A program made the position numbers and the translations under genes. A stretch of DNA of 64,000 bases from Berberis thunbergii (taxonomy: Eukaryota; Streptophyta; Magnoliopsida; Ranunculales; Berberidaceae). Of this stretch, positions 8,958 through 55,447 are shown in pieces; positions within the stretch are counted from its first letter, which is position 1, and every line of letters starts with the position of its first letter. The DNA is taken from NCBI GenBank assembly GCA_003290165.1, contig QNQO01002099.1:62001-126000 (forward strand). Direction: 5' to 3'. The notes below the pieces were generated by a model. It saw only the letters and a list, made by a program, of their open reading frames with translations, searched no databases and was not told the origin of the DNA.

Positions 8958-10537
8958 TTATGATTCCTCAGGGTACTTGAAGATGCCAAAGGATGGATTA
9001 CCAACAGTGAACCCTCCATCGATGACCAAGTTTAGCCCACTGACATACTTTGAATCCTCACTAGCAAGGTAAAGAGCAGCTTGTGTGACGTCTTCCTTCT
9101 TGAGAAACACCCCCTTTAGGTTTGCAACAGCACCCATAGCTTGTTCAAGCTGGTCATCATTCAACTTGATGAATTTTGAAGCCAATGGTGTAACACATGC
9201 ATATGGAGATAAGCAATTCACTCTAATACCAAACTGTCCAAGCTCTGCTGCTGCATTCTTGGTTAGCCCAACCACTGCATGCTTTGAACATGTATATGCA
9301 TGAGAGGCAGCCTGACCTACAACTGAGGCAACACTAGCAGTTGAAATTATGCTGCCACTTTTTGCCGGGATCATCACTCGTGCTGCGTGTTTCGTGCAGA
9401 GGAATACGCCTGTCATAAAAAGAAATTGGAAAATTTTAGGCCTTCACTTGATAACATTCAGAGCTCTAACTAAATTAAGATGCAAAACAATCACCCCCAA
9501 GTACACAAAAATACAATCAAAATGATCTGACATCCTTACCTGTGACATTTATACTCATGACTCTTTCGAAATCTGCCTTTTCATTGTCAATGATACGTGG
9601 TCTGGGCTCATCAACAACGCCTGCATTGTTGAACATGATATCTAGCTTGCCATAGGTTGATATGGCTGTGTCAACTGCATTTTTCACTTGATCTTCATCA
9701 GTGACATCACAGTGGACATAGGTGGCAGAGGAACCAATGACATCACGAACTGAATGGCCCAATTCGTCTTGAACATCAGTAATTACGACTTTGCAACCAT
9801 GTTGGCTGAAAAACTTTGCAGTAGCTTCACCAATGCCGCTTGCCCCACCGGTGATCAAGGCAACCTTCCCCTCAAGTCTAAACGAAATTGAATTCAAATA
9901 CTAATCAGTATTCCATGTTTGGTTTTGTCATTCATTTTAAATGAGTTATATCTGTATACGAGTTTGTTAAGTTTTACAACTCCATAAGACATTACTCCAG
10001 CCTGAATCTAACCATGTATCTCGTAGGATCTATTTACTTGGACAATACAATTAATTATAAAAAGTTGATGTGAAACTTTATTTTCTTACGAAGTAAAGAC
10101 CAGATCTAGCTCATTTTAAAGAGATAATCTCCCTCGAGCTAAAGAGTAGGAGTGTCAAATTTTCGATTGATTGCTCTAAATCCATCTGTTACTAAAGTAA
10201 ACCAAATTTTCGAGACATGATCCACTGACACTCCTAGTGCGTAATTGAGCAATCCAACATTTTAAGTAGTTTTAAACAGTAACTTTTAGGGATTCTTGAA
10301 ACCCTGCTTGCTTTAAAAAAAAATAAAAACTATTAGAGATTCCTAGCTCGTCTTAGGAATATTTTGGTAAGACAGGTATGAAACTGAAGAAGATTAATGA
10401 TTAATACTAAACACTGGATTCATGTAAGAGTTGAAAGAATACGCATTCCTACTATATCGAAGAATATGAATTTAAACACCAAATAGAAAATAGAAATACC
10501 TTCTTGCAGCTGCATGGAGAAGTGAAGTGGATACCAT
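8958..10537 (-). CDS. Short-chain dehydrogenase/reductase (SDR110C type), copy B
   Basis: NAD(P)-dependent alcohol dehydrogenase of the secoisolariciresinol/xanthoxin dehydrogenase-like group, probably cytosolic with no signal peptide. Minus-strand exons 10537-10500, 9877-9540 and 9409-8958 join in phase across GT-AG introns of 622 and 130 bp to give 275 residues. Domains: one Rossmann fold with TGGASGIG at residues 22-29, NNAG about 90 residues in, Ser151, and YTCSK with Tyr164 and Lys168 completing the Ser-Tyr-Lys triad. The C-terminal substrate loop (SPYAC.TPLA) and tail (NPSFGIFKYPEES) are nearly identical to copy A. The start is supported by the 38-bp first exon conserved in both copies and by a TATA box upstream. 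No breaks are seen. It is likely the better-preserved member of the pair. Confidence 0.9.
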
Positions 10538-31159: not shown

Positions 31160-31690
31160 GATTCTCAAACTCACAAAAATAGTAGTATTATGAGTTATTT
31201 AATAAACACAACTTGAATCACTTGAAAATGTTTTGAAATGAGCAAGTCATAATTATTTTACTAAAGTCGCGCAAATCTGTCTTGCAATGAAAATGGGAGT
31301 GTCCCTGACTTTCGGCCAACTTATATGCTCGATCAAGATCGATTCTCAAGTTCATTCAAACACAAAAATTGTAGTACTATGAGTTATCTAATAATCAAAA
31401 TTTGAATCACTTGAAAATGTTTTGAAATGAGCAAGTTATGATCATTTTACTAAAATCACGCAAATTTGTCTCGCAGTGAAAACGGGATAGTGTTCCTGAC
31501 TTTCAGCCAACTTACGTGCTCGATCAAGACCGATTCTCAAGTTGATCAAACAAATATTTTAGTACTCTGAGTTATCTAATAAACACAGCTTGAATCACTT
31601 GAAAATGTTTTGAAATTAGCAAGTAATGGTAATTTTACTGAAGTTGCACAAATCTGTCCAAAAAGTGCAAAATCTCGCCTAAAACAATGT
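31160..31690 (+). repeat. Three tandem repeats of ~185 bp
   Basis: Units begin near GATTCTCAA at about 31160, 31341 and 31531. Each contains GTACTATGAGTTATCTAATAA-like sequence, CACTTGAAAATGTTTTGAAAT, CGCAAAT.TGTC and GCTCGATCAAGA.CGATTCTC. Non-coding; possibly the subterminal repeats of an unrecognised element. Confidence 0.6.
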
Positions 31691-32350
31691 GATGTTTTTG
31701 CAAAAACTCGCAAAGTTCCAAGCAAACAGGAAATTTCAGCAAAAAAATTTATTGTTCGCCCAGATCAATACGAGGTTTTGCAAAAACCTCACATTGGCTT
31801 AGGCAAACAAATATTTTTTTTGTGATTTCTAAAGTTTACTTTGTTTTTGTGATTGAAAAATTTCTAAAGTTTTCTTGAGATTATTTTGTTTTTTCTGAAA
31901 ATTTTTTGGGAGGTTGCGATTTGGGGTTCGATTTTTAAGGGTTTTGATTTTGATGGAGGGGAAAGAGATTGGTTTTGATTTTGCAAGAGATTTGAATGTG
32001 AAAAAAGATTTGCAAGAAATTTGACTCTGAGAGAGAAGAGATTTGAATGGGAGAGGGAGGAATGGAGTTTTGATTTGAATGGAGAAGGGGAAAATGTTGA
32101 TTTTTTGTTTATATAGGTGGTGTGAAAAAGTGTGGTGGTATGAGAAAAAAAGTAAATGGTGTAGGAGAGTAGAATAGTGCGAGAAAGAGAAAATGGTAGT
32201 GTGGAGTTAATTAGCTCTATTCAAGTCATAATGGTGCCCTGTCCTTCATTTATTCTAAAGGAAAAAAAAAGAAATCAATGTACAGTTACTAGCTCTTCCA
32301 TCTTTTTATTTGATTTTATCACTTTTGATTGTGAAGACAATGCGAGAACT
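31690..32350. other. Purine-rich intergenic sequence
   Basis: The stretch 31940-32200 is GA-rich on the plus strand (GAGAGAGAAGAGATTTGAATGG type). The small frames here are low-complexity artefacts. No gene seen. Confidence 0.45.
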
Positions 32351-32432
32351 TCTAGGGAGCGAGGGACGCCCCCACCGCCTACTCTCCTTGAGATGAGCAA
32401 GGGTGGCGGTGGGGGCGTCCCTCGCTCCCTAG
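32351..32432. repeat. Palindromic hairpin element, copy 2 (near perfect)
   Basis: 82 bp. The arm TCTAGGGAGCGAGGGACGCC continues with CCCACCGCC and is exactly repeated in inverted orientation at the other end, giving a perfect 29-bp stem with an approximately 24-nt loop. It is very GC-rich inside AT-rich DNA. Same family as 2956-3038. Confidence 0.8.
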
Positions 32433-32740
32433 AATTTCCCAAACAATATATATAACATCAAAAGGGAAGACGAACATACAAGGGAAACGAGGAGCTCACA
32501 AACAAAAGACCAATGAGGAAAACACTAAATAACTAAAATAGACTACAAGAACAAACAATGGATTCCCTAGAAACTCCAAACCATGATCTTAATGTTTTCC
32601 CATATACTCTCCACCTTCGACTCTTCCCTTCAAATAAATGATGATTCCTTCCTTTCCAAATAGACCAATGAACTGTGAACTGCAAACCAGTTCCATATCC
32701 AATTGCCTTTTCAAGTGAAAAAAAATAAAAAATAAAAATA

Positions 32741-32802
<62 letters not shown>

Positions 32803-33310
32803 TAAACCTTGCCATTAGACAATATGATCAGCCCACTGCCTATCTTATCGACTAAAGGAGTCAGCCGTTGGAGGTACACCTCCACATTCCATCACCAATA
32901 CAGTCGAGACTTGCTTAGTAAAAACACACTGGAGGAACAGATGGACAATAGATTTTGAGTGTGTTCAACAAATTAAGGGCGAGATAGTATATGAGTTTCC
33001 TCACTGAGCATGGTAATAAAAAGCGTGGTACTATACACCAGTATTCATAAAGCTTCCGTCATATTCATCATCATCATATTACAATCATCATATTACAAAG
33101 ACTAGATCATAAGCATATATTACATTCAACTCCAGTTTATAGGTGATTATAACAAGACCACAACTTTGACGATCTAAATCTAAACTATATACTACAAATG
33201 TCTCAGGAAATGGCTCAAAAGATAAACTAGTAATGCACATTGAGTAACACTATATATCTACCAAAACATTCATCCCTTACTTATATTGCAAGACTAGAGT
33301 GTTGGTAACA
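32433..33310. other. Intergenic with AT microsatellite
   Basis: Holds an (AT)n tract at about 32742-32800. Its minus-strand frame of alternating Ile/Tyr is not a gene. On the minus strand near 32600-32690 there are weak LINE-like words. The right end includes the 3' UTR of the small gene that starts at 33311. Confidence 0.45.
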
Positions 33311-35034
33311 CTAACGAGGCTCTTTTGTAGAAGCTGATGTAGGCTTCCCACTTTCACTTTCTTGAGATTCCTTCTTTGAGCCAAAGATGAAACTTTTCAA
33401 CGAATTTTCTGCTGATTGAATACTCTGCTTGATCTGCCATTGCAACTGAACTTATGAGAACTTCAAACAACATAGACAGGTAGCAAAAGTACAGTCCAAC
33501 ACAGTAACTTAGACGATTGACTATGTTCACTAGTTCAATCAAGACCCTCACATTCACCGTTTTCAATCATTTAGTAACCCACTACGCTACAGTTCTGAAT
33601 TACGGAAGTCAATAAGTCTCATATAATTGTGAATTCTTGAGCAAGTTCTCTTGTATAACCAAGAGAAATGAGTGGCTACATCTTTAAAACATACCACATT
33701 ATTGAGTTGAATGGCTACTTAGAATTGCAAAGTAAAGAGTTCAGTATTGAGTCTTGAAATTCTAAGAGACAATTCATCAAACAATTTCAATAATACAAGT
33801 CTTTGATGAAATAAGCATTCCCATATACACTAATTACCACATTATTGAGTTGAAAGGCTACTTAGCACACTGCAATAGAATTGCAGGATGGATGCAAGTA
33901 TTGAAAGTATATTCAGTCCAAATAATTAATTTGTACTGAATTTTACAATTAGTTTGATAGACACAAAAAAATAGATTCAGGTTTAGCAATAGGACCCTCT
34001 GCCAAGGTGCATCGCACAGTTTTCTATGATACTTGCAGCTAAAGATCTCTTCAACATACAAACTAGTAAGCAGGATTCCAAACTTTTTCCATTAACAAAA
34101 CTTTCCATAGCAGCCAAGCAAAGAGTTCAGTATTGAGTCTTGAAATTCTAAGAGACATTTCATCAAACAATTTCAACAATACAAGTCTTTGATGAAATAA
34201 GCATTCCCATAGACACTAATTACCACATTATTGAGTTGAAAGGCTACTTAGCACACTGCAATAGAATTGCAGGATGGATGCAGGTATTGAAAGTATATTC
34301 AGTCCAAATAATTAATTTGTACTGAATACTGCAATTAGTTTGATAGACACAAAAAAATAGATTCAGGTTTAGCAATATGACCCTCTGCCAAGGTGCATCG
34401 CACAGTTTTCTATGATACTTGCAGCTAAAGATCTCTTCAACATACAAACTAGTAAGCAGGATTCCAAACTTTTTCCATTAACAAAACTTTCCATAGCAGC
34501 CAAGTAAAGAGTTCAGTATTGAGTCTTGAAATTCTAAGAGACATTTCATCAAACAATTTCAATAATACAAGTCTTTGATAAAATAAGCATTCCCATATAC
34601 ACTAATCTACAAGAAAAACATCTACCTATTCAATCCATAATTTACTCTTTGCATATTATTACTAACCCAATCAAACTTTCGGCCAAAAAGGCTTCAAATG
34701 AAACATACCCACCAAAGATTTAGTGATCCTAAGCCAATAAATTGAAACCAAAGAGACCCAAAACAAGATTTCAATCAGAAGGAGAAATACCCATTTGACA
34801 TAATCAACAAAAAAAACCAACTAAGCCATTTAGAATTCAGAAAAATTGGAAAAACAAGTAGAACCCAATTACATAAATTCTATGATGAAATCGAGAATGG
34901 GAAGTAGAAATACTGCATACAGGGTTGAGGATGTTGGGTTCGGGACCGTAATCGGCGGTGAGGAGGAAGTAGGAAGCAGTGATAGTGGCCACCATGGTTG
35001 TTCTTCTCACTAACTTCTCTGTCTTTGGATCCAT
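33311..35034 (-). CDS. Conserved plant protein of 78 residues, function unknown
   Basis: Two exons on the minus strand: 35034-34921 (38 codons, MDPKTEKLVRRTTMVATITA then SYFLLTADYGPEPNILNP) and 33433-33311 (40 codons plus TAG). The 1487-bp phase-0 intron has GT at 34920 and AG before 33433. The product has a short basic N-terminus, a hydrophobic segment at about residues 14-27 that could be a membrane anchor, a YGPEPN..NP turn, an amphipathic part (IKQSIQSAENSLKSFIFGSK) and a Ser/Lys/Glu-rich tail. I recognise this arrangement as a small uncharacterised protein conserved in land plants, possibly organellar, but know no function. The intron carries a 386-bp tandem duplication. Confidence 0.75.
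33735..34606. repeat. 386-bp tandem duplication inside an intron
   Basis: Period exactly 386 bp: AAGAGTTCAGTATTGAGTCT occurs at 33735, 34121 and 34507. That gives two full units and a third partial unit of about 100 bp. A further partial match to the unit (ACCACATTATTGAGTTGAA) precedes it near 33691. The units differ by only a few substitutions, so the duplication is fairly recent. Confidence 0.9.
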
Positions 35035-38540: not shown

Positions 38541-40205
38541 CACATAACGACAACCTATTTTTATTTGACCCGCAATTGGATAATAAAGGCACCCCAAAGC
38601 CCAACCTTAGTTCCAAAATTTGAAAGACCCTGCTTAATAGCACCACCGCTTCTCTTGATGGATACCACCAACACTCTACTTTCTGAAAAAGACCACCACA
38701 TTTGTGAAGGACACACCATCTGATAAAAAGACACCACCAATAAAAGGTAAGAAAAATCATAACCCCACTTATCCTCTCTCCCTTTATTCTCCATCAACCA
38801 CCGCCGCCACTTCCTTATCCTTTTCCATTGACCACCACTTCCTTGCCACCGCCACCTCTCTTCTTCCTCATATTCTTCTTCTTATTTACCACCTCTCATC
38901 TTTTTTTTCTCCTCTTTTTTCCCTGGCGGTGGCGAGGTGATTGTGGTGTTGATGGGGAGGTGGTGAAGGTAAGGAGGAAGAGAGCGGGAGGTGTCCCACC
39001 TCCTCCCATATTTTTTTCTCCTCCTATTTTTTTTCTCCCTGGCAGTGGCGAGATGGTGACGGTGAAGTGGCGGTGGTGAAGGGGAGGAGAGGTGGCGGTG
39101 GCGAGGTGGTGAACTTCTTCCATCTTTTTTTCTCTTATTCTCATCCTCCTTTTTTTCTCCTTAGCAGTGGCGAGGTGGTGGTGGTGGTGGTGGCGAAGGG
39201 GAGGATAAGAAGAATGAAAGGTGGCAGTGTCCCACCTCCTTTTTTATTTTTTTCTTCTCTTCTTTTTTTCCTCCCTGGCGGTGGCGAGTGGGTAGTGGTG
39301 AAGAGGAGGAGAGGTGGCGGTGTCCCACCTCCTTTTTTTTTAATCTTGCCCTCGCGACAGTTCCTGCAAGTGTGGTGAATTGTCGCAAGGGCAAAATTTT
39401 TGTCCTGTGCTCTTTTTTTTCGTGGCAGTTACCGGGAACCGCCGTGAGGGCAAAATTTTTTGTCTCGTATGGCAATTCCTGCAAGTGGGAAACACACACC
39501 CGCAGAGATTTGGGCGAGTATGGATTCCCCATTTGCAAGAATCGCCACGAGGGACATTTTTTTGCCCTTGCGACGGTTCCTGTGAGTGTGGGTTCCATAC
39601 TCGCTGTCACGGACTAGCAATCCGTGCGACATTATCTATTCAATTCACTAGTAAGTCTATGAGTAATTACTTTGACGGGCACAAATATTAACTTGAGAAT
39701 GCACAATATCAATCTGTAGACAATATAACAATGCACAATAGTCAGCAAAAGCTTTCATTAACATTCAATAGATTACAATGGGGAGGAACGTTCGAAAGGA
39801 CATTGCTCAAGACTAGTTCGATGCTATTGATCGATGGAAATACAAGTTTAAAGTTGAAAAACAATGCAAAGAAAACAATAAAAATGCTAGCGGTAAAGTC
39901 TGGCTCGACTATGCAATGAAAGCAACACGTCCTCACAGTCAAGAGCTCAAACATTCTCCCTATAATATAGATGCTAAGCATTTGGGCACTTTTCAGAAAG
40001 GAACATTGAGTTTTGAGACCATTAGGAAAGTTTTAAAAGGCCTCTGACCTTGATTTCCCTGACCAACAGTACTAGTCCTGACACTCTCCCACACTCAATT
40101 CGCTGACGCCCTCGCAGCGAACTTTTTCAAGTACTCTTCCAGCTTTGAGAGGTACGGCAACAGATGCTCGACTGGCTCCCAGCTGATCTTTGAAGGAGGT
40201 TCATC

Positions 40206-41622
40206 TTACCACTTGACCAAATACTCTCTATCCGGGCCTGTGTTGTTGATGAGGCGGTTAGCTAAGATTTCTTTCACTTCTTGATCTGGCTTAGTATGAT
40301 GCTTAGGCAATGCTTGGGTAGATACATTTCTTGTGGGATCAGTGGCATCTGCATGGTAGGACTTCAAGTTACTTGCATGGAAGACAGGATGGGTGAAACG
40401 GAGCCAATGTGGTAACTTGACGCGATAGGAGACTTTGCCGACTTTCTCAATAATCAGTATCGGTCCCTCATACTTGCGAAACAGATTGTTGTGTGCTCTA
40501 GCTGTCTGTTTATACTTGTTGAACAAATTTAGCTTCACCAATACCAAGTCTCCGACTTCAAAAGGATCAATCCGTCGTTTCTTGTCGGCCCATTTCTCCA
40601 TATGACGGGAGACTTTCTCAAGATAGGCTCAAGCAACTTCAATGTTTTTCTGCCAGGCTTTGACAAATTCAAGAGCTCTTAGGCTGGGTCCTTGGTATCC
40701 GGTAAGTATTGTATGTGGTGTCAATGGTTGTTGTTCAGTAACCAGCTGAAAGGGCTAGAATGAGTAGCTGAGCTCTTTTGTAAGTTGAAACAGAATTGTG
40801 CAACATCAAGTAGTCCCACCCAATTTTTCTGATTTGCACTTACAAAATGACGAAGATATTCTTCGAGCATAGAGTTAAAGCGCTCAGTCTGTCCGTCAGA
40901 TTGGGGATGTTGGCATGTCGACATATTAAGTTTGGATCCCAAGAGCTTGAACAACTCCTTCCAGAACTTTCCTATGAAGCGAGCATCACGGTCGCTAACA
41001 ATGTTTTCGGGCAGTCCCCAATACTTCACTACATGCTTGAGGAACAACTGCGCTGTATCTTCGGCTGTGCAAGTCAGTCCGGTCGGCACAAAGGTCACAT
41101 ACTTTGAGAATCGGTCAACAACTAGAAGGATACACCTGAAATCCTCCACTTTCGGTAACCCAGTAATGAAGTCCATGGAAACACTTTCCCAAGGACGAGT
41201 CGGAACATGTAAGGGCTCTAGTAAGCATACTGGTCGATCTCTTTCAATCTTATCTTGCTGGCAAATAAGACATGTTCGAACATAGACCATTACATCCTCA
41301 TGTATCTACGGTCAATAGTACCCCCTCTCTAGCAATGCAAGTGTTCGTCTCCAACCTGGATGTCCCGCCCAATGGGTGTCATGGCATTCGCTCAAAAGTC
41401 TTTCCTCAAACCAGAGGTTCTTGGAACATAGAGGCGATTACCAGTTGTGAGTATTGCTCCATATTTTATCCAGAACAGTCGAGTTTTGCCCTGCTTGATC
41501 AACTCAGTAATCGCCTTCGCTTGTGGGTCTATCTGTAGGCCTGCTTTAATCTTCTCCAAGATGGTGTGACTCGGACCAGTATGGGTTAGCACTGCAAGGT
41601 CTATTGAGTTCCTTTCAGGCAA
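40206..41622 (-). pseudogene. Integrase and chromodomain region of the deleted LTR element
   Basis: Reading leftwards: a spacer and integrase N-terminus (41622-41392), then a core frame (41290-40721) with CLICQQDK, MDFITGLPK, SDRDARFIGKFW and CQHPQSDGQTER, so the D, D and E positions are present. A downstream frame (40601-40206) has FEVGDLVLVKL, PVFHASNLK and EYLVKW. That last motif is the start of the chromodomain that marks chromoviruses (Del/Reina/CRM type). Stops near 40720, 40629 and 40205 break the frame. Confidence 0.8.
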
Positions 41623-41706
41623 GAATTGATTTCTGAGTTCATTTTTGAGGTCTGCCCAAGTTCTAATAAGGATGCGACATTATTCCATATCTGCATATTT
41701 GGTTCT

Positions 41707-42036
41707 CTACCATAGTTTCGCATCACCTACTAAGTACATGGTCGCCATGGTGACCTTGGCTTCTTCTGATTCGGGGTTCATCGCGCGAAAATACTGTTCC
41801 AGATCAAACAAGAAGTTCTCTAGCTCCTTCCCATCTCGTACCCCAGCGTATGACTTTGGCTCAAGCATTTTCATCCTAGGGTGATCAGTTGTCCCTGTGG
41901 CCTTGGTCAGCAAGCCAACCCTTGCATATAAGTCCTCCAATTGTAATTGGAAGTCACTCATCACCTGAGTTGTGGGGTGAGGCGACTCTTCCATAGCGAC
42001 TGTTCTTCCCTCTAAATTGTCGACGTGCTCAGCCAT
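41707..42036 (-). pseudogene. gag remnant of the deleted LTR element
   Basis: A 110-codon frame with a coiled start region and then KMLEPKSYAGVRDGKELENF and FLFDLEQYFRAM, the entry of the capsid-type gag domain of chromoviruses. It ends at VGDAKLW, where the gag domain would continue with the conserved W region. The rest of gag is deleted. Confidence 0.75.
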
Positions 42037-43045
42037 CTAATCCACTCTGTCTGCCAAGTGAAAGAGTCCATCAAGGCGACTGATTTGTTCTCCCAAACAG
42101 CTCAATTGGTCCATTCTGGTTTCTAGTCTTTGCATTCGACTAGCCTGTCGTTCCTCCATAGCGCCAAGGCACTCATTTAGTTCCTGCATCCTAGTTTGCA
42201 TTCAACAAGCTCTGGCTCTGATACCAACTGTCACGGACTAGCAATCCGTGTGACACTAGCTATCCAATTCACTAGTAAGCCTATGAGTAGTTACTTTGAC
42301 GGGCACAAATATTAACTTGAGAATGCACAATATCAATCTGTAGATAATATAACAATGCACAATAGTCAACAAAAGTTTTCATTAACATTCAATAGATTAC
42401 AATGGGGAGGAACGTTCGGAAAGACGTTGCTCAAGACTAGTTCGATGCTATCGATCGATGGAAATATAAGTTTGAAGTTGAAAAACAATGCAAAGAAAAC
42501 AATAAAAATGCTAGCGGTATAGTCTGGCCCGACTATGCAATGGAGGCAACACCTCCTCACAGTCAAGAGCTCAAACATTCTCCCTATAATATAGATACTA
42601 AGCATTTGGGCACTTTTCAAAAGGGAACATTGAGTTTTGAGACCATTAGGAAAGTCTTGAAAGACCTCTAACCTTGATTTCCCTGACCAACGGTACTAGT
42701 CCTGACACTCGCAGTAACCGCCGCGAGGGCGAAGATATAAAAAAAGGAGGAGAACATCGCCACCGTCCTCCCCATCTCCTTCACCACCATGCAATAGGGA
42801 GGAAAAAAATGATGAGGAGCCCACCACCTCCTCCCCTTCACCACCACGCAACAATGAACCACCCTTTTTTTTCATTATGTGTGGTGGTGGTATGGTGCTG
42901 GTTAGGTGGTGGTGAAGGGGAGGAAGAAGAGGGGGGAGGAGGAGTGGCGGTGGTGGGATTGATGGAGAAGAGAGGGAGAGAGGAGAAGAGGAGTTAGGAT
43001 TACGAATTTTTTTAGTTTATATAGTGATGGTGTCCAACAGAAAAA

Positions 43046-43224
43046 GTGATGATGTTATTTAGCAAGGGCTACACTGAGATACACGAAATCACGAAAATCT
43101 CTCGGCTTTTCCTTCTCTTCTTCTTCTTCACCACTTCGGTTTCCTTTAAAAAAAAAAAAAAAAAAAAAATTCTCTCTCGACTCACATAACACCGGTTCAT
43201 TGATGACTCGCTAATTACAAACGA
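43046..43224 (+). promoter_or_regulatory. 5' leader and proximal upstream region of the nitrilase gene
   Basis: Only about 180 bp separate the transposon end from the ATG. It holds a CT-rich tract (TTCCTTCTCTTCTTCTTCTTC near 43107-43127), an A22 run (43149-43170) and an in-frame TGA at 43204-43206 just before the start. No clear TATA box is seen. CT-rich leaders are common in plant transcripts. Confidence 0.4.
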
Positions 43225-46200
43225 ATGGAAGAAACCGAACACGAATCCGAAACCGTCCTAAAACGACGCCGGGTCGACTCTGACGAACCCACCACCGCCA
43301 AAAACGAGCGGCGAAACAACAGCCGAATCAGAATCCCGGCCCCAGTCGCCCCCGCGCTCAACCACTTGACTCAGGAGCTCGGGCACCGGTCCAACGGCGA
43401 GACGATCCAATGGCTCATCGAGCAAGCGCGGCCCGAACTCGTCCCTCAACGACCCGTCAAGAAACCTCCCCGAGTCAACTCGGTAGCGAACGGCGAGGGG
43501 CCGATTCCGATTGCGTTCACTTACCCAAGCGATAGTGGAGATGGGTTCAGTGGAAAGATCATGGCTTTGGTCCCCATTGAGAGCAGTGGGGACTCTACGG
43601 TTACAGAGGCCGAGGAGGAGAATGGGTCCGTTTCTGGGCCCAGGCCCACTGTCAGGGTCTCCGTCGTGCAGGCTTCCACGGTGTTCTTCGATACTCAGGC
43701 GACTTTGGGTAATGTTTGATTGTGTTTTATGGTTTGTTTTTAGGGTTATTGATGAATTTACTGATTTGGGTATTTAGGGTTTTGGAGAATTTGATTGTGT
43801 TTGTGTTAAAGTTGGGAGCTTTAATGGTTTCTATGTAAGTTTAGGGAGAATGTGAAGGCTATATGACGTTATTAGGTGTTGTGGGTCATCTTTTGTGGTC
43901 CTTTTGTGTCTGGCACTTATAATTCAGCATACTTGCTCTCCTCCTGTGTTACTGTAACAAATAGATTTTCTATGCTCCGGGACCATTTTTGTTTTGATGA
44001 TAATAGAGCCTACTTTTGTTCCTCAGAACCATACAGATTTTGCGTTTTGATATTGAGGGTGCTATCAAGGAACTTATTTATTCAGTGCCGAGAAGCTATA
44101 TGTTTTTCATGTTTGGAACTTTTGAGTGGTTTATGGATGTATATATTAGTATGATATTATGATTTGAAATATGGTTCTGCATCAACCTTGATTGTACTGA
44201 CCTCCGATGCACGTTAGTCATGATTGATGAGCTATTTTGGGAAATCTCATTATCTGCAAGTTTGTCCAATTCAGTTTAGAACTTTTGGGGAGTGGATGAA
44301 GAGAAGAATAGCGAATATTAGAATCTTGTGGTATCCTGCAAAGTGCGGGCTAGGAATCCACTCAAGTATACGTCCATACCTCCCAGATGTTTCCATCAAT
44401 ACTGTTATTAACTTATTTATTTTGGGGGTGGGAGGGGGGAGGTTGGTGTTAATACTTATTTGGTCCGTTTCTTGTTTCTAACTGAATTCGTTGTTTGTCT
44501 CATGTATGCAGATAAGGCGGAAAGGATGATTGCTGGCGCTGCTATACATGGCTCACAGTTGGTTGTATTTCCAGAGGCATTTGTTGGTGGTTATCCCCGC
44601 TTTATAGATGTTTCAACCAATGACAACAATGAGTTCCAAAAGTATCATGCTGCAGCCATTGACGTGCCAGGTGAGATCCATTTGTAGACACCAAAGCCTT
44701 TTATTGTCTCTTGATCTGCAGCTATTGTAACTGTTTATTTCTGACACATCCTACATGGAAACAAATGATATGCAATAAATTATGTAGTTTAACTAGAAAC
44801 AAAATATGAAAAATGTCTGGTCGCAAAATGCTAATATGTGTTTCTTGATTCTTAAAAAATTAATAAAATTGCTGGACAGTAGAAAGACCACTCAATACGT
44901 GTGTCTCCTGCAAGTGAGGAAAGAGAGAGGGTGACCAACCTTTTCCATCTGCAAGATGATGGAAGATGAACCGTCACAGACATTCGCTTCCTCTTTCCTT
45001 GCTCTTTGCCCTACCAAATTCCACAGAAGCGTCTAACTGCACTTGTTTGGTGTTGTTTCCTTGCTTCCTTTGAACCGAAACAATGCATTCACCTTGAAAC
45101 TTATAGCCTAAAGGATGTTATCCTACTATCACCCTCACTTGATTTATTTGTTGTAACCGCAATGGACTTATGCAGTTAAAATGGATAACGGACCCATAAT
45201 GGTCTAGGAGCGTTATAAGTTATTACGGGTTATATTGAGATATAACGGTATATAAGAAAATATTTTTTTAAAATATATTTTTACATCCCCACTAAGTATA
45301 TTGATATGAACTGACACTTTTATTGATGAAAGGAAAGTGAAGATACAAAATGTACAAGCTTTTGAGAGGCTTGACTCTCCTCAACTTGAGTAGCAGCTCT
45401 GTTTACAGAATTTTCAGACCCTTATTATGACCATCCCCACTTCTATTTATACAAAATACATGCTTACAACACTAGACCATTTGTTACAATTGATATCACA
45501 AACTCTTGCCAGCTTTACATTCAACCATCCTGACACAGCTATTTGCCAGCCTGACATCTAACCACAACTGATACAACTATTTGCCAGCTTGTCATTCAGC
45601 CCTGCACCCTGGTTTGACAGATCAGCCACTAACTGCTTCTAACCTCTTTACTTCCATGTTCTTCCTTGTATACGTCCTTGTTCCTCCTTGGATAGACATG
45701 CCGAACTGGTGGCCTATCAATACCCCCGCCCCAAAGACTCACCTTGTCCTCAAGGTGAAACTCCAGAAACAACAAAATCGTGACTGACCTTTGCTGTCCT
45801 AACTCCTTGCTGATCCATGACCCATGATACTTGAATGTTTGGAGGTTTGCTGGCCTAATAAACCGCCCACCTTGATCTGTCGAGAATGGTAGCATGTAAT
45901 GGAAAGGAGGCCAAAGTTGTCGCTTACAAAATTCAGGGTAGAATTTCAGCAACATATCCGGAGGAAGGAAAGTAGGCACAAACTTGAACCTCACCAACAA
46001 GATTTGTGAAACATCATCTTTGTCTCTTAGAGACTTGGGAGCATCACTAGATATAATTGGCAGAGCTTCCTCATTGACTTTCTCAACTGTCCTGGTGTAA
46101 CCATTGTCTTCAAGTTTCAGACTTCTACAATGATCTTCATCTAGTTCTTGTGATTCAGCAGTTTGGTCAACATCACTTTCAGTTTCATTAAACTGTATAT

Positions 46201-49200
46201 CAATGCTTGGAGGATTACATTCTTCCCTGTGACCCTGGACACCAGTCATTTCTTCCATTTTCCCATCTTCTACCACTGAAGTTTGCTGCGCCACACCTGC
46301 AACTTCCGCCTTCAAAGAAGAGACACTTTGTGATAATAGTTCTAGCTTCTGTTCCATGGACTGAAGTATCTTTCTCACCTCTAGCATACATCTCATTTGT
46401 TCTTCCGAAAGATCTATCATTGCAGACATCGTACCCAAGATCAATGCTTTGATACCAATTGATATGAATTGACACTTTTATTGATGAAAGGAAAGTGAAG
46501 ATACAAAATGTACAAGCTTTCGAGAGGCTTGACTCTCCTCAACTTGAGCAGCAGCTCTGTTTACAGAATTTTCAGACCCTTATTATGACTATCTCCACTT
46601 CTATTTATACAAAATACATGCTTACAACACTAAACCATTTGTTACAACTGATATCACAAACTCTTGCCAGCTTTACATTCAACCACCCTGACACAACTAT
46701 TTGCCAGCCTGACATCTAACCACAACTGATACAGCTATTTGCCAGCTTGTCATTCAGCCCTGCACCCTGGTTTGACAGATCAGCCACTAACTGCTTCTAA
46801 CCTCTTTACTTCCTTGTTCCTCCTTGTATACTTCCTTGTTCCTCCTTGGATAGACATGCCTAACTGGTGGCCTATCATATATTAATGTATTATAGACTAT
46901 AGAGTATAGAGTCAAAAAAGTAAATCACTAAATATAAATTTGTTACCGCCAGTTTGCCAATAATGCCAATAAACTTGAAATTAATCACTAATCATTGCCC
47001 ATATTTGTTTCAAGTAAACAAATATTTAAATAAGGGAAGTTTACAGAGATCGCAGCACCAGCACTCCATCACGACTAAATCCTTGAACTGTGTTATCTAC
47101 ATTATCAAACACACTCAATTAATTTCAGTTGAACAACAGATGTATAATCATTTGCATCAATTGTAATTTGTAATCACTTGCAAGGTATGAAATTTATTTG
47201 TGGATTCAATTTATTTCTATGAATCAGTAACAATTTTTCGTTTCCTGCAATGCCATATGGGGGGAAGCTAACTACTATTGTAGTATTGTTTTTGTTCAAA
47301 AGTCAAAACTCAAAAGTCCAAACAAAGAATGAAAAGCAAAGCAAAGCAAACAGAGACAAAATCGTACATCAGAAAAGAAGGAAGAAGCAAAGCAAAGCAA
47401 AACAGAGAAGAAGGAAGAAGAAGAAGAAGGAAGAAGCAAAGTAAAATGGAGAAGAAGAAGGAAGAAGCAAAGCAAAACAGAGAAGAAGGAAGAAGCAAAA
47501 CAGAGATTAGACTTACAGAGATGGTTCGATCCTTCTTCTCTTCTCCTTCCCTTCTTCTTCCTGTTCCCTCCTTCTCTTCCCCTCAAACCGGTTCGATCAA
47601 TCAAAAAGGAATCGAAAAGGGGCCAAGGTTCGATCGACTAAGACCAACTTCTTCATTCATTTCTCTGCTAGGGCTCGCTTGACTGCTTTCGTTTCTCTGC
47701 GCTAGGGCTCGACTTCTTCAGGGTCTGCGGGTCTGAAATTGAGAATAAATTTGGTTAGTAAAAAAAAAAATTTGTTTTTATTTCTCGATTCGTTATATCT
47801 ACGGTATGAAAAAATGATTTATTAAAATAACGCCCGATAAACTCCCTTACAACTCCCTCCGTTATACCCTACCGTTTTATGAAAAAACTTAACGCCTCGA
47901 ATCCGTTATGAGTTATTTCGGCGTTATAACCCGCAATTAACTACATAGCAATGGACAAAAAGGCTTACCTAATAGAAAAAGATGCGGCCCATGGCATACC
48001 ATGGTGTTATTTAGTCTTTTCTACAACATCCCATCGTTATTTGCAATTCCACTTTTATTTGTAGGAGGTTTTATGATTTACCTTATCAGAATAGTGTGTA
48101 CTTAAGTTGTATATCTGGATTAGTATCGCAAGTTGTGGCTTTTAGGTATCCCATTTTTTTTCCAAGAAAACCTGTAGGATTGGATTAAAGAAGGTGGGGC
48201 AATAAGTTCAATGCACAGTTTCTATAGAAGATTGGGTGATAATTTCATTCCGGCACTCAAGCATTTCAACCAAGCTCAGCTTTCCAAATGGTTATGCACG
48301 TTCAGCAAGGTGGTGGGACCTAGTGGAGAGCAGTTATACTGGAGAAATATGCAGGCCCTTTTGGCTGACTTTGGAATGACTCAGTGGTTTAAATGCTATC
48401 AATGACTTTATAGATCAGTGGCATGAGTACAGGTTTCCAGTGGTGTTTTTTCCTCATGGTTGGTGAATTTGGGATAGCTTGATCCATGCTACTGTGGAAA
48501 GAAAGAAATTCTAGGATAACAAGAAACTGATTGATCCAATCATTATAGACTTGGGTTGTGGGTTATACATGGGATCCTTTGAAAGGGAATATTTTAGAAT
48601 GACAGTTGGTTTGTGGTTTTTAGTAGAGAGAAGCAAAAATTCTTCCCTTTCCTTTTTTCACTTCCATTACTTATATATAAACTCCATGTTTTTTTTCGAT
48701 TAAAAAAAATATGTGAAGTGAATGGACATTGAAATTAATGGAATCAACATGTATACTGGTATTATAAAGTGATCAATACTTTATAAACAAACGAGAAAAA
48801 ATCATGGTTATTTAAAAATAAATTCCTTAATTTCGTCAATACTGATAGGGAAATACCAAGTTTACGAAGAGGCTAGAGGGAAAAAACGATTAAAGCAGAG
48901 ATTGATCTTCCCTTCGTTCCACTCATCCAAAATCTTCTATCTGGGGGAGAATCCGAACTCTCGAGAGATAGCATTCACTGTTGGTTTTATCCATCCAAGG
49001 AGAACGATCAATATTGGAGGGACATCAAAGTAATATTAGTGGGACATAAAAGCAATAGTACCTTGGACTCGGATATTAATAACGAAAATGATTGAACCAA
49101 TAGCAGATTCACCTTGTAGGCTTCGATGTTGACGAGCTTCCTATCCTAAAAGCAGCTAATACCAAGTTGTAATAAGGGAGCAGTGCATGGGTTGATCTCA

Positions 49201-52200: not shown

Positions 52201-53566
52201 AAAGGCTGCCCGGGATGCTAGGCGAGCTAGGTGCCCAGGCCAAGCTTGTCACGTCACATCGCCTCACCCTGGGACAACATAGTAATAATCATTGTTTTGC
52301 ACAAGTCCTCTACCTTCCTGTTCATTGTTTAAGATTTTAGTTAAGATTTTAGCCGACTTGGATTAGTTTTTCAACTTTTAGGGTACTCAAATTGATTAGG
52401 GAATTAGTTAATACATACATTTGGTATTAGCAAGTACTGAATTGTTTTGTTTTATATATTTCATTATTGTTTTCAGTCTGAATTTGAAGTTTGTGCATGT
52501 AGGTCCTGAAATTAACCGAGTGGCAGCAATGGCCGAAAAGTATAAACTTCACATAGTGATGGGAGTGGTAGAAAGAGAAGGGCTTCAACTCTACTCCACA
52601 CTTCTAGTTTTCGATTCCCATGGTCAGTGTCTTGGTAAACACCGCAAGCTAATGCCAACAGCATCAGAGCAAATGGTATGGCAAGCAGGGAACAAATCAA
52701 CACCTCCTGTGTATAAGACCCCAGTTGGAAAGATAGGCGGCCTCATCTGCTGGGATAGTAGAATGCCCCCTTTAAGAACACAATTATATGGCAAAGGTAA
52801 CCCTTTGGTACTTAAATTTGATCTTCTGGTGAACCTGCATATACATTACTGCTACTTCACAGTATTAGCCTGTCTTAAAAATTAAAATATGAACTCATGC
52901 TCTAGTTTGTGAAGCTTCGTTAACATAAATGAATTCGTTCAAACCATGAATATGAGATCAGCACTCAACAGGACCCAACACAGTTTGATTCTTGGAAAAG
53001 ACGGTGTACCAAGCAGTGACGAAGCCAGGATTTTTGTTGAGGGGGGGGGGGGGGGGGGGGGGGAGTGATGTCATAATTAAATTAATATAATATAAAAATT
53101 AGTTACTTTAACATGAATTTTTTTTTAAATACAACAAAAAGGGGAGTACAACAAAGACAATCATTGAAGATGATTACTACTATATTCATTGAAGATTATT
53201 ACTACTTCTAGAAACACAACACAAGAGAATAGTTTGAATCGTTGATTACTACTACATGAAGAAAATGAGGAGATTGGGTTGCTTCAGATTTTTTTTTTGG
53301 AGATGACCGACACAGTGATTAATGAAGGCACCTGGTACTTAGAAGAAGAAGAATAAGGTGGTTTGGACCCTGCTGGATCTTGTGAAGATGAGTTCAAATA
53401 ACTCAATAGTTATAGATCTTTAAAGATGATGAAATATGGGGGTTTCCCTCATCTTATCCAATAAAAGTAGAGTTTGGATTTGATATTTACATGATTTGAA
53501 TGATGAAGTCCTGGTTGAAGTGAAAAGTGAGAATAGAGGGGCAAATAAAAAAACTAATTGGAGGAC

Positions 53567-53597
<31 letters not shown>

Positions 53598-55447
53598 TAT
53601 TCTCAAAAGTCAGTAGGGGCAAGTGCCCCCACGTGAATCCGTGCCTGGTACCAAGCACTCCGTGACTTAGAAATATTTGTGTTTGTATCCATGTCATACT
53701 TTTAGCCTTTCTAGTATCAATATTCCATGTAGACAAATGGTTCAGTGGATGGCCTTAGAGCATCTCAACCCATGGGGTGGAAAGCAAAAAAATTAGCTTT
53801 CCACCCTAAAAGGCAAAAACAACTTCACCCGTTGGGGAATAGCCATATTTTTGCTCCCACACATTTGCATAGCAGGGAGAACCCACGCGCTGAACCTACT
53901 TCCCCTATTATCTCCCTCCACTTTGAATGCTGCCCCATTTGAAGTGGGGGATTCCCCCCCCCCTCCCCCCCTCTCTCTCTCTCTCTCTCTTTCCTCTATC
54001 AACGACACATTTGCAACTTCTGGTTGACTCAGTTTTTACGAGGCAGCATTCATTTACTGGCTCACACTTTAAATCTGCGAAGGGGCGGGTGGAGAACAAA
54101 AAAGTGGGGGTGAAAATGCCTTTTTTGCTTTCCACGTATTCTTAGAAGGGAGTCTTAAACAGTTGTTAATGATGGGCCTCGAATATAGATTTCCATTTAT
54201 GTCGTTAATCCACACTGGAAGGATCATAAGTTTACAGTCTTGGATACATCCTCAAACATCTCTTGTCCAATATTCTGTCAATTTCCACGAGAATAATTAC
54301 CCACAAAACAACCATGACTAGTGCTAGATACTGTTGGCAGTGATCCCCTTTGAACTTTAAACACTCTGGATTGTCAAGGGTAATAATTTTGAAATGTTTC
54401 AATCAAAAGAAAAAGGTATCGGGATTGGAGTAGTAATCACTTATGCTAATATGTGGTCATCCAAATAATATGGCAAGTTGAACAAATTAATATGTGCTTA
54501 AATGTCCAGTATATTATGGAGAAAGAAGAAGAGTTTGTTCTACCAAATTGGTGATTCATGATTCCTTGACCTTTGAATTGGTATCTTGGAACTTTGACAT
54601 GTTAGTGAGAAATCTAGTAGGATGATCAGAACAACAGCTTGTCTTTGCATGTTAAACAATGGTCATGGATTAATCATCCTAATTATGTTGAAGTTTAATT
54701 GTTTGAATCACTAGTTGAGGTGGACTAAATGCACAACCCTGTGGGTATGGTGCATTTAGCTTACTGTTGGAAGATGGAAGATAATTTTGTTCATCTAATT
54801 GACAAGCATATTATCAGGCATTGAAATCTATTATGCACCCACGTCGGATGCCAGTGATGCGTGGCGGTCATCCATGACCCATATTGCTGTTGAAGCCGGA
54901 TGCTTTGTTCTATCTGCAAACCAATTTTGTCAAAGGAAAGATTATCCACTACCACCAGAATGTGATTCCCGAGATGCAGACAAAGATCTCTCACCAGAAG
55001 CAATTGTGTGTGCGGGAGGCAGTGTTATTGTTTCTCCATCAGGGGCTGTTCTGGCTGGACCCAATTACCAAGGGGAGGCCCTGATATCAGCTGATCTAGG
55101 TAAGGAAGAATTTATTTACAATTGCCTTTATAATTCAGAAGTATTGTCATACCCAAGGAGCTTACATGGTGCATTATTCACCAATCGGATTGCTGGATGG
55201 TTTTCAAGTCCACTGGCATGGCTGCCTGACTGATAATAATGCACATACAAATTCAAGAAATTGACCCATTGATTTGTGCAAAAAGTGATACTTGTTATAT
55301 TTTTCGCTGCATGCAGATCTTGAAGAAATCGCACAAGCCAAGTTTGAATTCGACGTTGTCAAACAGGCTACATCCCTCGGTTTGATCGAGAGGAACCCTG
55401 CTTCAGGTTCATCAACACCTCCAGCTAAAAGTGAAGGTTCGTTTTAG
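43225..55447 (+). CDS. NIT4-like nitrilase with an N-terminal TCP-domain extension
   Basis: Five exons: 43225-43708, 44512-44670, 52503-52796, 54818-55099 and 55317-55447. They join in phase at GT-AG introns and give 449 residues. Residues 34-72 ([39 protein letters not shown]) match the helix-loop-helix half of a class I TCP domain, without the basic DNA-contact region. Residue 113 is the usual NIT4 start (MALVP). The nitrilase part keeps the Glu183 (FPEAF), Lys263 (GKHRK) and Cys297 (ICWD) triad, CAGGS and GPNY..GEALI. NIT4 enzymes convert beta-cyanoalanine to Asp/Asn in cyanide detoxification. Oddities: CWD for [11 protein letters not shown] for WGFGDGST, a 7-residue shorter loop after GGYPR, and a diverged tail lacking GHYSRPEV. 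Either ATG could be used, but the first follows an in-frame stop. Activity is uncertain. Confidence 0.75.
45302..46877 (-). mobile_element. 1.6-kb LTR element with a chimeric ORF
   Basis: LTRs 46460-46877 (5') and 45302-45719 (3') are both 418 bp, TGATATGAA..GCCTATCA, nearly identical, with target duplication TATAT on both sides (45297-45301, 46878-46882). PBS TGGTATCAAAGC is at 46457-46446, two bases inside the 5' LTR. The 740-bp interior is almost filled by one minus-strand frame. LTR length identity and near-identical sequence indicate a recent insertion. Confidence 0.9.
45629..46444 (-). CDS. Chimeric gag-pol-end ORF of the small LTR element
   Basis: An uninterrupted 271-codon frame beginning next to the PBS and ending inside the 3' LTR. 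Residues about 13-50 form a heptad-like helix ([20 protein letters not shown]) of the kind found at the start of chromovirus gag. The middle is acidic and unrecognised ([20 protein letters not shown]). A later segment ([20 protein letters not shown]) is also unknown. The end, [15 protein letters not shown], resembles the extreme C-terminus of chromovirus polyproteins after the chromodomain. Everything between is absent. It may be an open frame kept by youth of the insertion rather than by function. Confidence 0.5.
   Translation of the reverse strand: MILGTMSAMIDLSEEQMRCMLEVRKILQSMEQKLELLSQSVSSLKAEVAGVAQQTSVVEDGKMEEMTGVQGHREECNPPSIDIQFNETESDVDQTAESQELDEDHCRSLKLEDNGYTRTVEKVNEEALPIISSDAPKSLRDKDDVSQILLVRFKFVPTFLPPDMLLKFYPEFCKRQLWPPFHYMLPFSTDQGGRFIRPANLQTFKYHGSWISKELGQQRSVTILLFLEFHLEDKVSLWGGGIDRPPVRHVYPRRNKDVYKEEHGSKEVRSS
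47957..48840. other. Intronic sequence, unidentified
   Basis: A 64-codon frame at 48211-48405 ([20 protein letters not shown]) lacks a recognisable family. It could be an old coding fragment. No splice-supported exon is seen. Confidence 0.35.
48850..50340. other. Possible organelle-derived DNA insertion
   Basis: Composition changes to a more even, less AT-rich, non-repetitive sequence with mixed GC words (CCCGCTACACCTAAACTTGC, GGGCGGCCCCGTCTCTC, GCTCCCTAGCTGCTTCTTGA twice). It reminds me of plant mitochondrial intergenic DNA. I cannot match it to a known mitochondrial gene, so this is a weak call. Confidence 0.25.
50341..52502. other. Distal intron 2 sequence
   Basis: Mostly AT-rich. Words of the type CGCCTAGGCGGACGACTAAG (about 51116-51135) and GATGCTAGGCGAGCTAGGTG (about 52213-52232) bracket about 1.1 kb and may be ends of a TIR element, but the inverted match is poor. 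AT repeats lie near 51217. No exon seen. Confidence 0.35.
53016..53648. mobile_element. MULE-like MITE, copy 2, in intron 3
   Basis: Perfect 9-bp target duplication TACCAAGCA (53007-53015 and 53649-53657). The left end is GTGACGAAGCCAGGATTT, and the right end CACGTGAATCCGTGCCTGG has GGATTCAC as its inverted match. Just inside the left end is an uninterrupted run of about 24 G (53041-53063), and near the right end an (AT)n tract then GGGGCAAGTGCCCCC. It has no coding capacity. Same family as 137-939. Confidence 0.8.
53745..54150. mobile_element. Possible MITE in intron 3
   Basis: Inverted words GTGGAAAGCAAAAAA (left, about 53779; GGTGGAAAGCAAAAAAATT) and TTTTTTGCTTTCCACG (right, about 54120-54136), each about 15-35 bp inside possible ends that share CTTAGA. 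It contains a C-run and (CT)n tract at 53955-53992. Boundaries are tentative. Confidence 0.4.

What the first reader, a model, noticed from the sequence alone, without database searches (positions are those of the whole stretch)
43225..43708. In-frame fusion of a partial TCP transcription-factor domain to a NIT4-like nitrilase
Exon 1 reads open from an ATG just after an in-frame stop. Residues 34-72 look like the class I TCP helix-loop-helix (RIRIPAP..QELGHRSNGETIQWL), and the exon then passes without intron into the normal NIT4 start at residue 113. The basic DNA-contact part of TCP is missing or replaced (KRRRVDSDEPTT..ERR). I know of no described TCP-nitrilase protein. It could be a dimerisation tag that links a metabolic enzyme to TCP partners, a nuclear-targeted nitrilase (KRRR could be a localisation signal), or an accidental capture used only as leader.
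Basis: partly seen in the sequence, partly recalled or inferred. Interest (0 to 1): 0.88.

Follow-up and report, generated by a model that had tools for sequence, protein, structure and literature searches.

The report
Ancient plant TCP–nitrilase fusion gene
One plant gene reads straight from the pairing part of a TCP transcription factor into a nitrilase enzyme, and because the same joined protein is found in many flowering plants it is likely an old, working fusion that would tie an enzyme to gene regulators rather than an accident of one genome.

Summary
Exon 1 (43225-43708) is open and carries a TCP match (Pfam, E 1.3e-8, residues 33-72; PDB TCP15, E 6e-10) running without intron into a NIT4-type nitrilase; the five-exon model gives 449 aa. 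It is not a one-off: 36 of the 120 proteins listed by a protein search carry both TCP and CN_hydrolase domains, the named ones from Ranunculales, Proteales and core eudicots. On unrooted nitrilase trees all fusions tested fall on one side of a branch and ordinary NIT4 on the other (100/100); the window groups with Ranunculaceae. The TCP helices are about as conserved as the enzyme, the linker is not. The TCP DNA-contact (basic) arm is intact in 24 of 31 scorable fusions; it is missing in the window/Ranunculaceae group, which shares an RNNSR motif instead, and in poplar/Hevea. Catalytic Glu and Lys are kept in 33 of 33 fusions, Cys in 27 of 33 (not in the Malvaceae and Hevea rows). Prior art: a 2018 poplar paper noted a TCP-like domain on PtNIT2/PtNIT3. 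Best reading: a likely nuclear nitrilase that pairs with class I TCP proteins; in most sampled relatives probably a DNA-binding TCP with an enzyme-derived domain. Expression, binding and catalysis were not tested.

The parts
43203..43214 (+). three-codon upstream ORF (M-T-R-stop), out of frame with the main ATG
   Evidence: sequence
43225..43708 (+). exon 1: N-tail, TCP strand and helices, linker and start of nitrilase domain (161 codons + 1 base)
   Evidence: GT donor at 43709
43261..43272 (+). KRRR basic cluster (residues 13-16), nuclear-signal-like by eye; a basic cluster precedes the TCP part in 38 of 39 fusion rows
43321..43440 (+). TCP strand and two helices (residues 33-72)
   Evidence: Pfam; PDB; AlphaFold helices 39-52 and 57-68, block mean pLDDT 85-90 over residues 41-70
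43441..43638 (+). linker (residues 73-138), poorly conserved, pLDDT under 50 over 82-132
43561..43563 (+). internal Met113 ATG, A at -3 and G at +4; possible second start
44512..44670 (+). exon 2 (predicted); catalytic Glu183 at 44574-44576
45302..46877 (-). small LTR element inside intron 2 (not part of the protein)
   Evidence: ends by eye
52503..52796 (+). exon 3 (predicted); catalytic Lys263 at 52646-52648 and Cys297 at 52748-52750
54818..55099 (+). exon 4 (predicted)
55317..55447 (+). exon 5 with stop codon (predicted)

Best explanation
Exon 1 joins the strand and two helices of a TCP domain in frame to a NIT4-type nitrilase, and the protein likely acts in the nucleus as an enzyme that pairs through those helices with class I TCP transcription factors, probably with little DNA binding of its own. 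Shown by sequence: the open fusion exon, the TCP match, the Glu-Lys-Cys triad, a group of such fusions across eudicots, and helices that stay conserved in rows without the DNA-contact arm. Inferred: splicing of exons 2-5 as modelled, nuclear import through KRRR, dimerisation with class I TCPs, and what the enzyme part does there. The original fusion probably kept the whole TCP domain, as most sampled relatives still do, and would have been a DNA-binding regulator carrying a nitrilase-derived domain that binds or turns over a nitrile and holds subunits together; in the Ranunculaceae-like lineage the arm was replaced, which would leave a partner-binding, TCP-modulating nitrilase.
For: TCP match above threshold. 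36 of 120 listed hits carry PF03634 plus PF00795. Fusions fall on one side of a branch against NIT4 with 100/100 in two trees (27 fusions with 21 NIT4; 33 with 6); the window groups with five Ranunculaceae-type rows at 100/99. Mean identity, TCP helices / linker / nitrilase: window against four Ranunculaceae-type rows 0.66/0.34/0.73; among those four 0.83/0.46/0.83; 20 pairs of Papaveraceae and Proteales against core eudicots 0.68/0.21/0.71; window against six other rows 0.60/0.21/0.69. Basic cluster ahead of the TCP part in 38 of 39 rows, Humulus being the miss. NNSR is shared by the window and the four Ranunculaceae-type rows and by none of the other 34 rows. Glu 33/33, Lys 33/33, Cys 27/33. 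The five Malvaceae rows aligned have Tyr for Cys; the four of them with a complete N-terminus keep the full basic arm. Two helices modelled, block mean pLDDT 85-90. NIT4-type nitrilases form helical filaments of dimers (PMC6214922, passages read). P0002 (474 aa on a 1608-base contig) and P0011 (449 aa on a 1690-base contig) hold the whole coding stretch on contigs too short for introns like those here, which suggests spliced transcripts.
Against: No transcript, localisation, dimer or enzyme data for this gene. Poplar PtNIT2/PtNIT3 had very low transcript abundance in leaves, though slightly raised by herbivory, and could not be cloned from leaf cDNA. The window row is a long branch (0.33), which makes its place less sure; it lacks the class I helix-start Cys (Cys in 31 of 35 rows, four of them stand-alone TCPs; Val here) and has 4 private changes at otherwise invariant nitrilase columns, including N300S beside the active-site Cys. 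Met113 has a better start context than the first ATG, so a nitrilase without TCP could be made. That the basic cluster works as a nuclear signal was not tested; class I TCP domains carry such basic residues anyway.
Confidence: 0.5

Rival explanations
1. Metabolite-sensing transcription factor: the nitrilase domain binds a nitrile such as beta-cyanoalanine and changes TCP dimer or DNA activity, and the window copy still binds DNA through its remaining strand and new RNNSR arm.
For: Full TCP arm in 24 of 31 scorable fusions; catalytic Cys absent but arm kept in four Malvaceae rows; group-wide changes near the active site: D for E two residues after the Cys column in 33/33, S for L in the pocket-rim motif in 31/33. 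The strand pair at the dimer interface contacts DNA (PMC10049435, passages read), and the strand RIRIP is kept in the window.
Against: The same review says the N-terminal basic loops also take part in DNA recognition, and these are gone in the window group; no ligand or DNA-binding data.
Confidence: 0.27
2. A nitrilase whose TCP-derived N-terminus is now only a leader or stability tag, on the way to loss.
For: Basic arm missing in two separate groups; TCP score just below threshold in Populus (21.1 bits) and Hevea (22.9; threshold 23); helix-start Cys missing in the window.
Against: In the Ranunculaceae-type rows the helices are as conserved as the enzyme and the linker is not; the 11 helix-region positions conserved in at least 90% of 35 rows (window included) are all kept in the window.
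Confidence: 0.15
3. Annotation artefact: the TCP reading is untranslated leader and the real protein starts at Met113.
For: Met113 has A at -3 and G at +4; the first ATG has C at -3 and G at +4.
Against: No other fusion of 33 has Met at that column; the fused reading is conserved as protein in many species; two out-of-frame ATGs (43410, 43541) lie between the two starts.
Confidence: 0.05

Closest known systems
Poplar PtNIT2/PtNIT3 (Günther et al. 2018, PMC6196558; abstract, passages, sections 7 and 8 read)
   Same: NIT4-group nitrilases with an N-terminal TCP-like domain; a Populus trichocarpa protein (P0039) falls among the fusions here. That P0039 is PtNIT2 or PtNIT3 was not checked.
   Different: In the parts read, the paper treats poplar only and offers a possible regulatory role in one sentence. 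The window copy lacks the arm in a group separate from poplar/Hevea.
NIT4 beta-cyanoalanine nitrilase/hydratase (AtNIT4, PDB 6i00)
   Same: Same domain and triad; E 4.9e-123, 56% identity in the Foldseek match.
   Different: Other side of the tree branch; fusions lack the NIT4-type interface Arg (0 of 33 against 6 of 6 NIT4) and have a changed MPTALER motif; NIT4 has no TCP part.
Class I TCP transcription factors (TCP14/TCP15)
   Same: Strand and two helices; TCP15 is the only TCP among the PDB matches shown; stand-alone TCPs returned by the region search include one named TCP14.
   Different: Window copy lacks the basic arm and the helix-start Cys and carries an enzyme after the TCP part.
TCP proteins without the N-terminal part of the basic region (tomato TCP26, Brassica rapa TCP12a/TCP1c, named in PMC9682074, passages read)
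   Same: Arm-less TCP domains are known.
   Different: Those named are class II and no enzyme part is mentioned in the passage.
BAM7/BAM8 BZR1-beta-amylase regulators of Arabidopsis (recalled, not read; look-up not held)
   Same: Plant transcription-factor domain fused to an enzyme-like domain.
   Different: Unrelated domains on both sides; analogy of design only.
Nit-Fhit fusion protein (PDB 1ems)
   Same: A nitrilase-superfamily domain fused to an unrelated protein (matched at E 1e-4).
   Different: Another nitrilase branch and another partner (recalled).

Membership tests
TCP transcription factors, class I | Pfam TCP above gathering score | tested here: met
   36 bits vs 23 for exon 1; 32.9 in the full protein
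TCP transcription factors, class I | basic arm DRHxK...RxRR | tested here: not met
   absent in the window; present in 24 of 31 scorable fusions
TCP transcription factors, class I | strand plus two helices | tested here: met
   RIRIP in alignment; helices 39-52 and 57-68 modelled; the model shows no strand there and the dimer was not modelled
TCP transcription factors, class I | four-residue deletion in the basic region relative to class II | tested here: inconclusive
   window arm replaced; full-armed relatives align with stand-alone TCP14-like rows without insertion
TCP transcription factors, class I | helix-start redox Cys | tested here: not met
   Val41 in the window; Cys in 31 of 35 rows
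TCP transcription factors, class I | binds GGNCCCAC-type DNA as a dimer | not testable with these tools
   needs a binding assay
NIT4 nitrilases | CN_hydrolase domain with Glu-Lys-Cys triad | tested here: met
   E 2.3e-58; E183, K263, C297
NIT4 nitrilases | falls within the NIT4 group of the tree | tested here: not met
   fusions and NIT4 on opposite sides of one branch, 100/100; unrooted
NIT4 nitrilases | conserved interface Arg and MPTALER rim | tested here: not met
   window has a gap and MPTASEQ; meaning of the positions from PMC6214922, column match made by me
NIT4 nitrilases | beta-cyanoalanine activity | not testable with these tools
   needs an enzyme assay
eudicot TCP-nitrilase fusion group | TCP-derived N-terminus plus nitrilase of this group | tested here: met

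The most novel reading that the evidence does not exclude
Eudicots carry an overlooked family of enzyme-built gene regulators in which a nitrilase filament arrays TCP dimers and reads a nitrile such as beta-cyanoalanine, linking ethylene- and cyanide-related metabolism to TCP growth programmes; the Ranunculaceae-like lineage turned it into a TCP-capturing enzyme by swapping the DNA arm for a new conserved RNNSR arm.
Probability: 0.25. Interest if true: 0.87.

Novelty: new variant of a known kind. Interest (0 to 1): 0.72.

Why it matters
A transcription-factor domain and a metabolic enzyme have likely stayed in one polypeptide since Ranunculales, Proteales and core eudicots parted, with each half changed in different lineages (DNA arm in the Ranunculaceae-type and Populus/Hevea rows, catalytic Cys in the Malvaceae rows). 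That makes a natural test of which half carries the function, and a direct way to ask whether a nitrilase can control a TCP factor. The one paper found that mentions the architecture treats poplar. Whether Arabidopsis has the gene was not tested here.

Tried and rejected
Chance or one-genome accident: not supported. Shared internal NIT4 start at Met113: not borne out; 17 of 33 fusions have a gap and 15 another residue there. The first protein search, with exon 1 alone (162 aa), gave 19 candidates and no hit (candidates are limited by length); the full protein succeeded. The region search with P0012 gave 12 hits of 19 candidates, and one search listed 120 of 6276 hits from the 7998 candidates scored, so absence from asterids, monocots, Vitis or Brassicales cannot be claimed. 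First AlphaFold run poor (mean pLDDT 57.9); the second (62.5) is usable for the TCP helices and parts of the nitrilase. Rows dropped: the first tree used 48 rows that I chose, after my pattern failed to cut P0008, P0011, P0026, P0050, P0067, P0075, P0107 and P0115; alignment A2 (43 rows: 33 fusions with the window, 6 of the NIT4 rows, 4 of the stand-alone TCPs) left out the fusions P0016, P0030, P0033-P0036, P0084 and P0089 (one gappy gene model and Gossypium near-copies); the arm count leaves out P0007 and P0031, whose N-termini are cut. Hevea P0128 lacks a stretch of the nitrilase domain, perhaps a gene-model fault. The change counts on the tree (2 for the arm, 2 for the Cys) do not give direction; I read them as losses because stand-alone TCPs have the arm and NIT4 has the Cys.

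Literature: ten searches, nine on TCP with nitrilase, CN hydrolase, NIT4 or fusions and one (38) on TCP structure; searches returned no paper. Searches listed 11, 20 (of 65) and 2 papers that hold the terms; of these I opened the poplar paper for this question and PMC6214922 for nitrilase helices, not the rest. A Quercus TCP survey (passages) has no occurrence of 'nitrilase', nor has the TCP review PMC9682074. No tRNA or Rfam match in the window.

Full report
What is in the sequence. The ATG at 43225 follows an in-frame TGA at 43204-43206, and the frame stays open through 43708, where a GT donor stands. With exons at 44512-44670, 52503-52796, 54818-55099 and 55317-55447, all introns GT-AG, the predicted protein has 449 residues. 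Third-position G+C is 0.68 over residues 1-112, 0.82 over residues 33-72, 0.71 over 113-161 and 0.36 in exons 2-5. Pfam gives TCP for residues 33-72 at 1.3e-8 in exon 1 alone and 1.1e-7 in the full protein, with CN_hydrolase at 2.3e-58. Among solved structures the best are TCP15 (6.2e-10) and Arabidopsis NIT4 (4.9e-123; species of 6i00 recalled).

It is a family. A search of 5.8 billion proteins scored 7998 candidates, found 6276 hits and listed 120; 36 of the 120 carry both Pfam TCP and CN_hydrolase. By my own motif test, 38 of the 127 proteins held besides the window's own exon 1 have the TCP strand ahead of a nitrilase. Named sources include Macleaya, Papaver, Coptis, Ranunculus and Aquilegia (Ranunculales), Macadamia, Protea, Telopea and Nelumbo (Proteales), Liquidambar, Fagus, Juglans, Prunus, Cannabis, Gossypium, Durio, Tripterygium, Populus and Hevea (orders from general knowledge). 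Trees of the nitrilase part put all fusions used on one side of a branch and all NIT4 used on the other, 100/100 (27 with 21 rows; 33 with 6 rows). No outgroup was used; the midpoint drawing nests NIT4 among the fusions, but since the NIT4 side holds monocots and magnoliids as well as eudicots, the simplest reading is that the two genes were already separate in the ancestor of living eudicots. Within the fusions, supported groups match plant families and orders. The window groups with the Ranunculaceae-type rows (100/99), though it is a long branch, so its species is likely a Ranunculales plant in or near that family.

What each half shows. In 24 of 31 scorable fusions the arm DRHxK...GRxRR is intact; on the tree its presence changes twice: the window with four Ranunculaceae-type rows, and Populus with Hevea, lack it. 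The first group shares NNSR in place of the arm, seen in 5 of 39 rows. The helices stay conserved there: 0.83 identity among the four, equal to their nitrilase, against 0.46 for the linker; for the window against them 0.66, 0.73 and 0.34. The 11 helix-region positions conserved in at least 90% of 35 rows are all kept in the window, though the helix-start Cys is not. A basic cluster precedes the TCP part in 38 of 39 rows. Catalytic Glu and Lys are present in 33 of 33 and Cys in 27 of 33; the five Malvaceae rows have Tyr and Hevea has Ser. The fusions differ from the six NIT4 rows near the active site: D for E at column 299 in 33 of 33, S for L in the rim motif in 31 of 33, and no interface Arg in any. 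In Capsella nitrilases that interface position affects helical twist and substrate choice (PMC6214922, passages), so a changed substrate or assembly is likely here.

Structure. With 66 sequences AlphaFold gives two TCP helices, 39-52 and 57-68, block means 85-90, a linker with pLDDT under 50 (82-132), and a nitrilase whose best solved match is NIT4 6i00 (E 2.7e-28). The overall model is modest (mean 62.5), parts of the nitrilase are under 50, and dimers were not modelled.

How it likely works. TCP domains bind DNA as dimers through a central strand pair and two basic N-terminal loops (PMC10049435, passages). The window protein keeps the strand and helices but not the loop, so pairing without full DNA grip is the simplest reading. 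A nitrilase with the triad attached to such a domain would be brought to TCP partners, or would draw them off DNA. Most of the other sampled fusions keep the full arm and would bind DNA themselves; the Malvaceae rows, which keep the arm and lack the catalytic Cys, suggest that the TCP part, not catalysis, is what is kept there. These functional steps are inference.

Prior art. Günther et al. 2018 (PMC6196558) state that poplar PtNIT2 and PtNIT3 have an extended N-terminus with a TCP-like domain, very low transcript levels slightly raised by herbivory, and possible regulatory functions. My other searches (Tried and rejected) did not turn up a second description, but most listed papers were not opened and subscription journals are mostly not held.

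Limits. No transcript evidence for the window itself. Expression in relatives is inferred from P0002 and P0011, whole coding stretches on contigs of 1608 and 1690 bases. Absence from asterids, monocots or Arabidopsis was not established.

Noticed in passing
45302-46877 (intron 2): Small LTR element, LTR match 45300-45719 to 46458-46877 at 96.7% identity, ends TG...CA and flanking TATAT on both sides by eye; its minus-strand ORF 45629-46444 matches Glyco_transf_20 (the trehalose-phosphate synthase type, recalled) at 5e-10, so it seems to have captured a host gene fragment.
   Followed up: partly
39604-42710: LTR retrotransposon with 94.2% identical LTRs and an integrase match on the minus strand (rve 31.6 bits, just under its cut-off of 32.6), ending about 515 bases upstream of the ATG.
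   Followed up: partly
8958-9416 (-): Short-chain dehydrogenase coding stretch (adh_short_C2, 8.4e-33).
   Followed up: no
31172-34606: Direct repeats with spacings of about 189 and 386 bases.
   Followed up: no
P0022, P0024, P0029, P0031, P0032 (Malvaceae fusions): Catalytic Cys replaced by Tyr; in P0032 (Gossypium) the following Trp is also replaced by Leu.
   Followed up: yes
P0004 (Coptis), after TLG: The gene model holds an extra stretch at the exon 1/2 border, likely a retained intron, consistent with the same intron position.
   Followed up: no
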